From Deltaproteobacteria bacterium (lineage in GTDB: Bacteria > Desulfobacterota > Binatia > UBA1149 > JAJCZL01), in assembly GCA_029262415.1 (NCBI GenBank), contig JAJCZL010000078.1:1-64000 (forward strand): a stretch of 64,000 nucleotides of DNA. Direction: 5' to 3'. The notes below the pieces were generated by a model. The model did not search any database and had not been told where the DNA came from. It saw only the letters and a list, made by a program, of their open reading frames with translations. The position numbers were made by a program, and so were the translations under genes. Positions 8,899 through 12,898 of the stretch are shown piece after piece. Each line of letters opens with the position of its first letter. Within the stretch, counting starts at the first letter, position 1.

Positions 8899-8941
8899 GC
8901 CGCAGGCGCCCTGCGCCTTTCTAAGACATGCAGGGGTGTTC

Positions 8942-8947
8942 TATACT
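8942..8947 (+). promoter_or_regulatory. Putative -10 element for the peroxidase gene
   Basis: TATACT lies 10 bases before the ATG at 8958 and no Shine-Dalgarno is present in between. No convincing -35 is seen at the expected distance. The spacing resembles that before valS. Confidence 0.35.
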
Positions 8948-8957
8948 CGCCGCGCCT

Positions 8958-10571
8958 ATGTGGTCGATCGGGAACAGAACTGTGTCGCGGGGGGTCGTGG
9001 CTGCGCTCCTTATGGCGGCGCTGGTTTTTCAGTCTCCGGCGGCGTACGCGTTCGAATTCCGGACCATAGACGGCAGCGGGAACAACCTGGCCGACCCCGC
9101 AATGGGGGCGGCTGGTACGATGCTGATCCGGCGTATGACCAACGCTTACGGCGACGGTGCCTCCTCGATGGGGGGCGCGCACCGCGCGGGCGCTCGTGAG
9201 GTTAGCAATGCGGTCTGCATGCAGACCGCTGACTCTCCCAACGCTGCCGGCGCGTCGGATTTTCTCTGGCAGTGGGGGCAGTTCCTCGACCACGACATCG
9301 ACCTGACCGAGTCGGCCACACCCGTTGAGTCGGCTGATATCCCGGTGCCGATGGGTGATCCGTTCTTTGATCCCGGTTCGACCGGACTGGCGGTGATCGG
9401 GTTCAACCGCTCCGGGTACGATCGCACGATGGCTGCTCAGACAGGGATGCGCGAGCAAACCAACGGCATCAGTGCATGGATTGACGCTTCCAACGTCTAT
9501 GGGTCCGACCGCGAGCGCGCTGCCGCTCTGCGTACCAACGATGGTAGCGGCCGGTTGAAGATGACCGAGTCCGGACTGCTGCCGCGGAACACCGCCGGTT
9601 TGCCAAATGCGGGCGGACCCGGCGCTAATCTGTTTTTGGCCGGCGACATCCGTGCCAACGAACAAGTTGGCTTGACGACAATGCACACGCTCTTCGTAAG
9701 AGAGCACAATCGGATCGCCGGGCTCATCGCCGATGCGAGTCCGCAGATGAGTGGAGAGGAGGTCTACCAGCGCAGCCGACGAATCGTTGGCGCGTTGATG
9801 CAGGTGATCACCTACCGCCAGTACTTGCCGACGCTGTTCGGCCGCGGCCGTATGTCGGTGTCCCGGGGGTACAAGCCGGCGAGGCGCGCTGCGATCATGA
9901 ACGAGTTTTCGACCGCGGCCTACCGTTGGGGCCATAGTGCTCTCAGCCCGCAGCTGTTACGCTTGGACGCCCTTGGCAACGAGATCGCCGAGGGACACCT
10001 GGCTTTGCGCGAAGCATTTTTCGCCCCGCATCGGATCACGGACGAAGGTGGCATCGAACCGATACTGCGCGGGCTCGCGAGCCAGAGGTGTCAGGAAGTC
10101 GATGCGATGATCGTCGACGACGTGCGGAACTTTTTGTTCGGACCCCCCGGCTCGGGCGGATTTGATCTCGCCTCGCTTAACATCCAACGTGGTCGTGACC
10201 ACGGGTTGCCGTCGTACGACGATGCCCGTGCAGCTATCGGGCTTAAGCGCGTCGGATCGTTTGGCGACATTACCCGCGATCGCGAAATGCAGGAACGGCT
10301 CGCCTCGGTTTACCGTGCGCCGGAGGATGTCGATCTGTGGGTAGGATTGCTCGCTGAAGATAAACTGCCGCGTTCGCTCGTCGGGCCGCTTGCTTATCGG
10401 ATGATGCGTGAGCAGTTTGAGGCTCTTCGTGACGGTGACCGTTTGTGGTGGCGGCGCGAACTGACCAAGCCGGAGCGCCGGATGGTCCGAGGCACTCGGC
10501 TATCAGACGTCATCCGGCGTAACACCTCGATCGATCGGGAGATCCGGCGCAACGTCTTTCGCGCGCATTGA
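8958..10571 (+). CDS. Exported animal-type haem peroxidase
   Basis: A 537-residue protein of the peroxidase-cyclooxygenase (animal haem peroxidase) superfamily. It starts with a Sec signal peptide (hydrophobic VVAALLMAALVFQ, cleavage after AYA). WGQFLDHDIDLTE carries the distal His with adjacent Ca-binding Asp, LFVREHNRIA is the conserved catalytic region, and YRWGHSAL holds the proximal His. LNIQRGRDHGLPSY is another family signature. These enzymes use hydrogen peroxide to oxidise halides, phenols or other substrates, here presumably in the periplasm or outside. I chose ATG 8958 over an in-frame ATG at 8928 because the signal peptide then has normal length. Physiological substrate is unknown. 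Confidence 0.9.
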   Translation: MWSIGNRTVSRGVVAALLMAALVFQSPAAYAFEFRTIDGSGNNLADPAMGAAGTMLIRRMTNAYGDGASSMGGAHRAGAREVSNAVCMQTADSPNAAGASDFLWQWGQFLDHDIDLTESATPVESADIPVPMGDPFFDPGSTGLAVIGFNRSGYDRTMAAQTGMREQTNGISAWIDASNVYGSDRERAAALRTNDGSGRLKMTESGLLPRNTAGLPNAGGPGANLFLAGDIRANEQVGLTTMHTLFVREHNRIAGLIADASPQMSGEEVYQRSRRIVGALMQVITYRQYLPTLFGRGRMSVSRGYKPARRAAIMNEFSTAAYRWGHSALSPQLLRLDALGNEIAEGHLALREAFFAPHRITDEGGIEPILRGLASQRCQEVDAMIVDDVRNFLFGPPGSGGFDLASLNIQRGRDHGLPSYDDARAAIGLKRVGSFGDITRDREMQERLASVYRAPEDVDLWVGLLAEDKLPRSLVGPLAYRMMREQFEALRDGDRLWWRRELTKPERRMVRGTRLSDVIRRNTSIDREIRRNVFRAH

Positions 10572-10603: not shown

Positions 10604-10804
10604 ATGAGCCGAAAAGTCATAGTCGATTTCGATCTTTGTGAAGCCAACGCCGTGTGCATGGCTGCAGCGCCGGAGATATTCAAAGTGGACGACGAGGACC
10701 TCCTGCACCTGTTGACGGAAACCATCCCCGACGATCTGCAGACCAAGGCCGAAAATGCCGTACGCATGTGCCCCCGCCAAGCGATCAAGATCGTCGAAGA
10801 ATAG
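10604..10804 (+). CDS. Small 3-Cys ferredoxin, probably [3Fe-4S]
   Basis: A 66-residue ferredoxin starting at ATG 10604. It has Cys12-x5-Cys18 and a C-terminal Cys56-Pro. The fourth cluster Cys of [4Fe-4S] ferredoxins is replaced by Ala (LCEANAVC), a pattern typical of [3Fe-4S] ferredoxins that feed cytochrome P450 or other oxygenases. It begins 32 bases after the peroxidase gene. No P450 is in the window, so its partner is unknown. A longer reading frame from a TTG at 10568 is possible but overlaps the peroxidase stop. Confidence 0.88.
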   Translation: MSRKVIVDFDLCEANAVCMAAAPEIFKVDDEDLLHLLTETIPDDLQTKAENAVRMCPRQAIKIVEE

Positions 10805-10824: not shown

Positions 10825-11847
10825 ATGGGTGCGGCGACGCAAGCGGGGCGGTGGACGAAGGCGACCGACAAGCGTCTGCTCAAGGTGAGGCTTTGCGATC
10901 TCGGTCTCCAGATCGAGGGGTCTTGGCTGGAGCAGCCGCTGCGGCGCGTCGAGCTTGAACTCGAAGCCAAGGGTATACGCTTCAAGCCTCACTACTGGCT
11001 CTCCGGCGAATGGTTCTCTCCTGACGGCGTGCCGGGGGTCGCTATCCCTTTCTTCCTCGCCGATTCCCGCCTGATGCGACTCGAGAAGAAACAAATGCTC
11101 GAGATCGAGGGGGCGACACGGTCGCAGTGCCTGCGTTTTCTCCGGCATGAGGTTGGCCACGCCGTACAACACGCCTATCTGTTGCACCGTCGCCGCCGCT
11201 GGCAGCAGGTCTTTGGTAGCTCCTCGCGCCGCTACCCGGATGCGTACAGGCCGAATCCGGCCAGCCGCAACTATGTTCTCCATCTTGACTATTGGTACGC
11301 GCAGGCGCACCCCGACGAGGATTTTGCCGAGACGTTTGCGGTGTGGCTGGCGCCGGGCTCTGCATGGCAGAAGCGCTACAAGGGATGGCCGGCGCTACGC
11401 AAGCTTGTCTACGTCGACGAGTTGATGGCCGGCCTCGCCGGCAAGCCTGCGCGGGTTCGCAGCCGCCGAAAGGTCGATCCATTGAATCGGCTGACCGAAA
11501 CCCTCGGGGAGTACTATGACTCAAAGCACGCGCGCTTCGAATCGCTGACGACCAACGTCTACGACGCCGATTTGCGCCGCCTTTTCGCGGGCGAGGCCGG
11601 CAAGGGGATTGCAGCGTCGCAGTTTCTACACCGCAGCCGCGCGCGGGTGCGACGCATGGTCGCGGCTGGAACGGGACGGCACGAATACGCCGTAGACCTA
11701 CTCCTCAAAGAGATGATGAAGAGGAGCCGCGAGCTCGAATTGCGCACGGCCGCCGACCCTGACGACCTCGTTGTGCGGTTGGCGATCCTACTGGCTGCGC
11801 GATCGGTTGAGTATCTTTACAGGGGGCGGGAATGGCACGCGATGTGA
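10825..11847 (+). CDS. Putative zinc-binding metallopeptidase (Peptidase_Mx-like)
   Basis: A 340-residue cytoplasmic protein with the zincin motif HEVGHAVQHAY near residue 110, where two His bind zinc and Glu is the base. PDEDFAETFAVWL about 60 residues later probably gives the third ligand, Glu. The overall pattern matches the uncharacterised putative zinc-binding peptidase group. The C-terminal third is rich in Arg and Lys and helical. No signal peptide. I chose ATG 10825 because the upstream part of the open frame overlaps the ferredoxin gene. The ATP-grasp gene follows after 37 bases, so the two are likely cotranscribed and functionally linked. Confidence 0.8.
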   Translation: MGAATQAGRWTKATDKRLLKVRLCDLGLQIEGSWLEQPLRRVELELEAKGIRFKPHYWLSGEWFSPDGVPGVAIPFFLADSRLMRLEKKQMLEIEGATRSQCLRFLRHEVGHAVQHAYLLHRRRRWQQVFGSSSRRYPDAYRPNPASRNYVLHLDYWYAQAHPDEDFAETFAVWLAPGSAWQKRYKGWPALRKLVYVDELMAGLAGKPARVRSRRKVDPLNRLTETLGEYYDSKHARFESLTTNVYDADLRRLFAGEAGKGIAASQFLHRSRARVRRMVAAGTGRHEYAVDLLLKEMMKRSRELELRTAADPDDLVVRLAILLAARSVEYLYRGREWHAM

Positions 11848-11884
11848 TTCGTGAAACGGACGAGGGCGAGGCGCCGTCGACGCG

Positions 11885-12898
11885 ATGAAGTCATTGCGCG
11901 TCATGGTGCTCGTCCATTACCAGTTGGTTCCTCCTGACACGCTCAAGGGCCTCAGCGAGGCGGAAGCTTACGATATCAAAACGGAGTTCGATGTCGTCGA
12001 TACGCTGCGTCGCATCGGACACGACGTGCACGTGCTCGGAGTCGGCGACGAAATACGGCCGATCCGCCATGCGGTGACGGAACACAAACCCGACGTGGTC
12101 TTCAACCTGCTCGAAGAGTTCGACGGCAACACGGCCTTTGATCATCACGTTGTCTCCTACCTCGAATTGCTTGGTGTCGCCTACACCGGCTGCAATCCAC
12201 GCGGCCTGGTCATTTCTCGCGATAAAGCGTTGTCAAAGAAGCTGTTCGCATACCATCGGATTCCGACGCCGAAATTCGCCGTGATCAGAACGGGGCGTAA
12301 GGTAAAGGTTCCGAAGGCGCTCAGTTATCCGCTGATCGTAAAGTCGCAGATCGAGGAGTCCTCACTTGGGATTGCCAAGGCGTCGGTGGTTGGTGACGAA
12401 GAACAGCTTATCGAGCGCGTCCGCATCATCCACGAACGCGTCAAAACCGACGCATTGGTGGAGGAGTTCGTCGAGGGGAGGGAGGTTTATGCGGGGTTGA
12501 TTGGCAACCACCGTCTCACCGTGTTGCCGCCGCAGGAGCTTGTCATTTCAGGGCTTGCCGAGGGGGAGTTCCTCATCGCGACCGAGAAGGTCAAGCACGA
12601 CCGCGGATACCAGGAGCGGCACGGGGTCGACATCAAGCTGTTCGATGGCCCACCGGAGCTCCTGCGAACCCTCGAACGTTTGGCCAAGCGGGTGTTTCGC
12701 GTTCTCCAGTTGAGCGGCTACGCGCGTGTCGATTTCCGGCTCGACGCCGACGGTATGCCCTTCGTATTGGAGGCCAATCCAAACCCGGAGATCGCCCGTT
12801 CTGAAGAAGTCTCCACTTCGGCCGAAGCCGCGGGGTTGAGCTACGAAGAGCTGATCCAGCGTATCGTCAACCTGGCCATGCAGCGTGCGGTTCGGTGA
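11885..12898 (+). CDS. ATP-grasp ligase of the D-Ala-D-Ala ligase family
   Basis: A 337-residue ATP-grasp enzyme. It has an N-terminal pre-ATP-grasp domain (DVVFNLLEEFDGN), the LGVAYTGCNPRGLVISRDKALSKKL region, the ATP-binding VKSQIEESSLGI loop, EEFVEGREVYAGL, and the metal-binding end YARVDFRLDADG and LEANPNPEIA. Ddl enzymes have a similar layout, but the final motif has PNPE where Ddl has N-x-x-PG, and no peptidoglycan genes adjoin. It more likely joins some other amino acid or peptide. The pairing with a Zn-peptidase suggests synthesis and cleavage or processing of one small peptide-like product. Substrate unknown. Confidence 0.82.
   Translation: MKSLRVMVLVHYQLVPPDTLKGLSEAEAYDIKTEFDVVDTLRRIGHDVHVLGVGDEIRPIRHAVTEHKPDVVFNLLEEFDGNTAFDHHVVSYLELLGVAYTGCNPRGLVISRDKALSKKLFAYHRIPTPKFAVIRTGRKVKVPKALSYPLIVKSQIEESSLGIAKASVVGDEEQLIERVRIIHERVKTDALVEEFVEGREVYAGLIGNHRLTVLPPQELVISGLAEGEFLIATEKVKHDRGYQERHGVDIKLFDGPPELLRTLERLAKRVFRVLQLSGYARVDFRLDADGMPFVLEANPNPEIARSEEVSTSAEAAGLSYEELIQRIVNLAMQRAVR

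What the first reader, a model, noticed from the sequence alone, without database searches (positions are those of the whole stretch)
10825..12898. Zn-peptidase and ATP-grasp ligase as a two-gene module
A peptidase with a clear HExxH and an adjacent Ddl-like ligase whose end motif differs from Ddl lie 37 bases apart. Ligase plus peptidase pairs often build and trim a peptide or modify a protein tail. Neither has a known substrate.
Basis: inference. Interest (0 to 1): 0.6.

Follow-up and report, generated by a model that had tools for sequence, protein, structure and literature searches.

The report
Paired zinc peptidase and Ddl-like ligase
Two adjacent genes, a zinc protein-cutting enzyme and an amide-bond-making enzyme related to the one that makes D-Ala-D-Ala, form a real, long-kept two-gene unit that probably makes and trims an unknown amide-linked product; the overall idea resembles known make-and-trim pairs, but this pair is unnamed.

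Summary
In detail: peptidase 10825-11847, ligase 11885-12898, 37 bases apart. The peptidase is a PF15887 gluzincin (HEVGH plus HPDEDFAE); its model resembles the catalytic folds of anthrax lethal factor and PPEP proteases. The ligase has the Ddl fold (Z 33) and all ATP-grasp residues, but fails every curated Ddl cut-off; the genome has a separate ordinary Ddl. The pair is a true module: in a 145-genome class sample, 37 of 41 genomes with a pair-type ligase have the peptidase directly upstream, often with a 4-base overlap, and the two trees match (r = 0.95). No third gene or small peptide gene is shared. It is patchy: none of 12 sampled genomes of the same family or order has it. In a 297-genome phylum sample all 22 peptidase genomes also have a ligase relative, while 84 ligase genomes lack the peptidase. 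Positions that hold the D-Ala2 carboxylate in Ddl carry two acidic residues in 26 of 27 paired ligases, suggesting a cationic amine acceptor; ligase relatives elsewhere sit beside KamA aminomutase or arginine decarboxylase genes. Most likely: a cytosolic make-and-trim module, analogous to RimK/RimB, substrate unknown.

The parts
10825..11847 (+). Zinc metallopeptidase gene, 340 aa, PF15887-type gluzincin, no signal peptide or membrane helix seen
11146..11160 (+). HEVGH motif (residues 108-112)
   Evidence: HExGH in 28 of 28 rows of A1
11308..11331 (+). HPDEDFAE: predicted third zinc ligand E169 and invariant H162 seven residues before it, where lethal factor and PPEP have Tyr (their spacing is recalled)
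   Evidence: HPxED(F/L)AET in 28 of 28 rows
11848..11884 (+). 37-base gap between the genes; replaced by a 4-base overlap in many relatives
11885..12898 (+). Ddl-fold ATP-grasp ligase gene, 337 aa
12770..12778 (+). E296-A-N298: metal-binding ExN of the ATP-grasp site (role recalled)
   Evidence: E296 and N298 invariant in 27 of 27 paired ligases
12803..12808 (+). E307-E308: acidic pair at the places of Ddl Ser281/Leu282 (E. coli DdlB numbering, recalled)
   Evidence: 26 of 27 paired ligases have D/E at both; 0 of 40 other relatives; register from alignment to PDB Ddl chains

Best explanation
A cytosolic two-enzyme module that makes and then trims (or undoes) one amide-linked product. The ligase activates a carboxylate as an acyl phosphate and joins it to an amine that is probably cationic (polyamine, basic amino acid or lysine side chain), not D-Ala to D-Ala. 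The zinc peptidase acts on the product or on the peptide that carries it. Shown: two intact genes, conserved pairing and order, conserved active sites, folds, altered acceptor pocket, peptidase found only where a ligase relative exists in the phylum sample. Inferred: that both act on one substrate, the direction (trim rather than supply), and the cationic acceptor.
For: Peptidase directly upstream on the same strand in 37 of 41 class genomes with a pair-type ligase; 29 of 29 best ligase loci besides the window, 14 with a 4-base overlap; also three MAG loci found by a separate scan, L003-L005. Tree distances agree, r = 0.954, 0 of 5000 permutations as high, n = 30. No other gene travels with the pair. 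22 of 22 peptidase genomes in the phylum sample also hold a ligase relative, against 106 of 297 overall. Active sites complete. Acidic pair in 26 of 27. Ligase relatives elsewhere lie with KamA or with arginase plus arginine decarboxylase, which use or make basic amines. A second, separate ligase-peptidase union: a ligase-M20 fusion in family f7.
Against: No substrate, expression or assay. Three genomes (G020, G028, G043) keep a pair-type ligase with no peptidase. In families f24 and f35 the peptidase stands apart from any ligase, beside molybdopterin-oxidoreductase/M20 genes or BioY. The acidic pair is a signature of one clade, so it is one event, not many. Tree agreement partly reflects shared descent. 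The KamA and arginine decarboxylase links concern related ligases, not this clade.
Confidence: 0.42

Rival explanations
1. Small-molecule biosynthesis: the ligase builds a dipeptide or amine conjugate (osmolyte, polyamine amide, antibiotic-like), and the peptidase is its degradative or self-protection partner.
For: Tandem ligase relatives sit in operons with KamA plus GNAT, or arginase plus arginine decarboxylase plus GNAT. Module is autonomous and patchy.
Against: No biosynthetic neighbour is conserved at pair loci; paired ligases lack a second ligase beside them.
Confidence: 0.27
2. Substrate supply: the peptidase cuts a host protein or precursor to free a terminus, which the ligase then modifies (graspetide-like or protein-tail editing).
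For: Peptidase is the first gene, often overlapping the ligase start. Peptidase-linked ATP-grasp groups without precursors have been described among graspetide-type ligases (PMC8939145, passages read).
Against: No small ORF shared by more than 3 of 20 pair loci within 3 kb. The ligase is Ddl-like, only weakly RimK-like.
Confidence: 0.14
3. A second cell-wall ligase (D-Ala-D-X, Van-like) with a peptidase that removes unwanted dipeptide, as in VanA plus VanX (that pair is recalled).
For: Ddl fold Z 33; Van-type models among the hits.
Against: All Ddl and Van cut-offs failed by wide margins; acceptor-pocket residues changed; peptidase belongs to PF15887, no other Pfam family matched; separate Ddl present.
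Confidence: 0.06
4. Only an operon habit: two unrelated enzymes that share expression.
For: Ligase without peptidase and peptidase apart from ligase both exist.
Against: Pairing kept over many families with all other neighbours changing, and 22 of 22 co-occurrence even where unlinked.
Confidence: 0.11

Closest known systems
RimK/RimB (glutamate ligase and its protease on ribosomal protein S6) and the rlo operon of Pseudomonas
   Same: ATP-grasp ligase and a peptidase in one operon with opposing action; RimB cuts what RimK adds (PMC12239564, passages read)
   Different: There the ligase is RimK-like and the protease a retropepsin; here the ligase is Ddl-like and the peptidase a zinc gluzincin; substrate here unknown
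Cyanophycin synthetase CphA1
   Same: ATP-grasp ligase and a metallopeptidase-like site cooperate on one product, an Asp-Arg polymer (PMC9262961, passages read)
   Different: One protein with an inverted HxxEH site; here two proteins and HExxH
D-alanine-D-alanine ligase (Ddl/Van)
   Same: Fold, ATP and metal residues
   Different: Acceptor pocket and all curated cut-offs
Peptidase_Mx PF15887 and the LF/PPEP/MtfA-like fold
   Same: HExxH plus late Glu ligand; model Z 9.3 to LF catalytic domain (134 aligned, 3.1 A), 8.3 to PPEP-3, 6.3 to 4l7a, 5.0 to 3khi
   Different: Probably cytosolic, no toxin or secretion domains; His where those have the catalytic Tyr (recalled); C-terminal helical part unmatched

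Membership tests
Peptidase_Mx (PF15887) | Pfam gathering score | tested here: met
   34.7 bits against 27, but over profile positions 86-164 of 236 only
Gluzincin metallopeptidase | HExxH plus downstream Glu ligand | tested here: met
   Motifs in 28 of 28 rows; zinc binding itself not tested
D-Ala-D-Ala ligase | Curated family cut-offs | tested here: not met
   Best 136.9 bits against 243
D-Ala-D-Ala ligase | Ser/Leu that hold the D-Ala2 carboxylate | tested here: not met
   D/E-D/E in 26 of 27 paired ligases; role of the residues recalled
D-Ala-D-Ala ligase | Makes D-Ala-D-Ala | not testable with these tools
   Needs assay
RimK/RimB | RimK-type ligase and retropepsin protease | tested here: not met
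   RimK domain only 26 bits over 88 residues, Ddl domain 97 bits; peptidase is PF15887
RimK/RimB | Ligase and protease act on the same product | not testable with these tools
   Needs assay
Graspetide system | Precursor peptide gene near the ligase | tested here: inconclusive
   No ORF of 20 aa or more shared by over 3 of 20 loci; an unlinked or fast-changing precursor is not excluded
Lethal factor/PPEP-type metallopeptidase | Shared catalytic-domain fold | tested here: inconclusive
   Z 9.3 and 8.3 over about 134 residues, but Foldseek E-values were not significant (best 0.93)

The most novel reading that the evidence does not exclude
An undescribed reversible conjugation system in which a Ddl-fold ligase attaches a carboxylate group to a cationic amine (polyamine, beta-lysine-like amino acid or protein lysine) and a lethal-factor-fold zinc peptidase removes or trims it.
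Probability: 0.2. Interest if true: 0.7.

Novelty: new variant of a known kind. Interest (0 to 1): 0.42.

Why it matters
Ligase-peptidase pairs control protein tails (RimK/RimB), cell physiology (rlo) and storage polymers (CphA1). A pair built from other folds, present in many uncultured lineages and with no named substrate, is a compact target for assay. The acidic acceptor pocket and the KamA and arginine decarboxylase neighbours of related ligases give a concrete first substrate list.

Tried and rejected
Short peptide gene: ORFs of 20 aa or more within 3 kb of the pair in 20 loci; the widest sharing was 3 of 20. Window neighbours (haem peroxidase, ferredoxin, MBL): no tblastn match in 24 loci (15 pair loci L038-L052; five loci with distant ligases L053-L057, of which L054 also has a peptidase; L003-L005; L092), so not part of the module. 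Defence: no PADLOC match for the peptidase, only a weak CARF hit for the ligase at E 0.0087, taken as chance. Plasmids: no peptidase match. PHROGs: none for the window peptidase. PDB by sequence: no match for the peptidase; Foldseek E-values for its model not significant, only VIA-align gave Z 9.3.

Ideas rejected: housekeeping Ddl (own Ddl elsewhere); VanA/VanX-like pair; toxin (no secretion or delivery domains seen, probably cytosolic). Kin named in print: nine paper searches on ATP-grasp with peptidase, aminomutase, arginine decarboxylase, osmolyte, amidase or MtfA/lethal-factor terms, and on PF15887, showed no paper on this pair in the listings; the most likely earlier survey, Iyer et al. 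2009, is not held, so prior mention there cannot be excluded.

Rows dropped: A1 and A2 hold 28 rows each; fragments and near-duplicates (L014, L017, L023, L030, L032, L035) were left out of both, and L005 and L026 out of A2. The tree used 30 rows with peptidases over 300 aa. The 40 'other' ligases are domain matches in 20 tandem or single loci that I picked from the 106 genomes, plus L053 and L057. Breadth outside the phylum rests on a single pattern scan (6 loci, 3 with the pair; pattern-limited).

Full report
The two genes. The window carries a 340-aa zinc peptidase gene (10825-11847) and a 337-aa ligase gene (11885-12898), both on the + strand, 37 bases apart. The peptidase passes the Pfam cut-off of PF15887 over its core only; the ligase is a Dala_Dala_lig_C protein. 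The ligase fails every curated Ddl or Van cut-off of NCBIfam that was listed, the best being 136.9 bits against 243. The same genome has a separate, ordinary Ddl on contig C71 with the usual EINTLPGF end motif. The peptidase has no relative in the same genome at E up to 1. Neither protein shows a signal-peptide-like or membrane stretch by a simple hydropathy scan, so both are probably cytosolic (inference).

Folds. The ligase model (mean pLDDT 90) matches Ddl chains over its whole length, Z 33. The peptidase model (mean pLDDT 86) gives no significant Foldseek hit. A second alignment of Foldseek's candidates puts residues about 30-207 on the catalytic domain of anthrax lethal factor (Z 9.3, 134 aligned, 3.1 A), PPEP-3 (8.3), a Bacteroides metallo-peptidase (4l7a, 6.3) and a Klebsiella hydrolase that I recall as MtfA (3khi, 5.0). 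Z near 9 is a moderate match. The C-terminal helices are unmatched.

The pair is a unit. In 145 genomes of the same class (an even sample), 41 have a pair-type ligase and 39 a peptidase match; in 37 the peptidase lies directly upstream on the same strand. Pair-type here means the upper group of ligase hits that I listed (140 bits and more, plus one 82-bit contig-end fragment); the remaining hits lie below 135 bits. The exceptions: three genomes of one genus (G020, G028, G043) keep the ligase alone, and G133 has it on a 3.4-kb contig whose upstream half kilobase holds no peptidase. On the peptidase side there is one extra copy without ligase (G034), two fragments (G075, G105) and a weak match (G004). 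For the 29 best ligase loci besides the window, 29 of 29 have the peptidase upstream; by my choice of start codons 14 overlap by 4 bases, and L003-L005 do too. Gene trees agree: r = 0.954 between tree distances, n = 30, 0 of 5000 permutations as high; shared descent alone also gives agreement. All other neighbours change, including the window's own ferredoxin and haem peroxidase. No small ORF is shared by more than 3 of 20 loci.

Distribution. The pair is missing from the one other family member and the 11 other order members sampled, although more distant families have it; loss or horizontal transfer is likely (inference). In a 297-genome sample of the phylum the peptidase occurs in 22 genomes and the ligase family (E up to 1e-50, a broad cut) in 106; all 22 are among the 106, hypergeometric P = 3e-11, not corrected for kinship. 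In 17 of the 22 (families f24 and f35) the peptidase has no ligase within the 1.5 kb fetched on each side (wider for a part of them), and the ligases lie elsewhere; its active-site motifs are intact in the 18 of 18 loci read (L063-L080). So the peptidase was never seen without a ligase relative in that sample, while 84 genomes have ligases without it. This asymmetry is why I favour trimming or undoing over substrate supply, but it is only suggestive.

Acceptor site. Relative to Ddl, the ligase keeps the ATP and metal residues (K114, K153, E193, E200, D283, E296, N298 invariant in 27 of 27; roles recalled) and Arg281. The places of Ddl Ser281 and Leu282, which bind the carboxylate of the second D-Ala (recalled), hold D/E-D/E in 26 of 27 paired ligases, the exception being L054; none of 40 other relatives has both (register checked against PDB Ddl chains). 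An acidic pair there should repel a carboxylate and could welcome a cationic group. This is inference from one clade.

Relatives of the ligase. Elsewhere in the phylum they often come as two adjacent ligase genes. Some such operons have a KamA-family aminomutase (L123, L126, L128, L129; three of the four with a GNAT acetyltransferase by cluster), others arginase and/or pyruvoyl arginine decarboxylase with a GNAT acetyltransferase (L115 tested; L113, L114, L117, L122 by shared clusters). In family f7 a ligase is fused to an M20-type hydrolase beside genes that look like gamma-glutamyltranspeptidase and N-formylglutamate amidohydrolase (my reading of the translations; fusion scored). The superfamily thus seems to work on basic or unusual amino acids and has been joined to peptidases at least twice (inference).

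Most likely mechanism. The ligase makes an amide between a carboxylate and a probably cationic amine; the peptidase trims or reverses it. The closest working analogues are RimK/RimB and rlo (PMC12239564, passages read), where deletion of the ATP-grasp gene cancels the defects of protease loss, and CphA1, where a metallopeptidase-like site cuts the polymer that the synthetase builds (PMC9262961, passages read). Membership in RimK/RimB fails on both folds; working like it stays possible. A graspetide survey notes ATP-grasp groups tied to peptidases without precursors (PMC8939145, passages read), and a study of CDC123 predicts peptide-tagging roles for another ATP-grasp clade (PMC4431377, passages read).

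Novelty. I found no paper on this pair in the searches listed, but the 2009 survey by Iyer et al. is not held. I rate it a new variant of a known kind: the design is known, the combination of folds and the acceptor signature are not described in what I could read.

Noticed in passing
L123, L126, L128, L129: Tandem Ddl-like ligases next to a KamA-family aminomutase and, in three of the four by cluster, a GNAT acetyltransferase: possible pathway for a beta-amino-acid peptide or amide.
   Followed up: partly
L113, L114, L115, L117, L122 (also L110-L112): Tandem Ddl-like ligases in operons with arginase-family and/or pyruvoyl arginine decarboxylase genes; most also GNAT, methyltransferase and dihydroorotate-dehydrogenase-like genes: possible putrescine conjugate pathway.
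   Followed up: partly
L055:6301-8487, L056: Ligase fused to an M20-type hydrolase, flanked by genes that read like gamma-glutamyltranspeptidase, N-formylglutamate amidohydrolase and ABC transporters.
   Followed up: partly
L134-L142 (IMG/VR contigs): Nine viral contigs encode relatives of the peptidase core without a ligase; the neighbours tested in three of them were portal, RusA and homing-endonuclease genes; in several the core is part of a longer protein.
   Followed up: partly
L133:4983-7102: A contig filed as viral carries the complete pair, about 63 bases apart, closest in type to L054.
   Followed up: no
window 8928-10571 and 10604-10804: Animal-type haem peroxidase and a single-cluster ferredoxin gene directly upstream and on the same strand; not conserved with the pair.
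   Followed up: partly
L006:7349-9106: Gemmataceae ligase relative continues into a region that reads like a GNAT acetyltransferase in one ORF.
   Followed up: no
L072-L080 (family f24), L064-L071 (family f35): Stand-alone peptidase homologues; in the loci tested, beside molybdopterin oxidoreductase/NrfD/M20 genes (f24) or beside BioY and YjgF-like genes (f35).
   Followed up: partly
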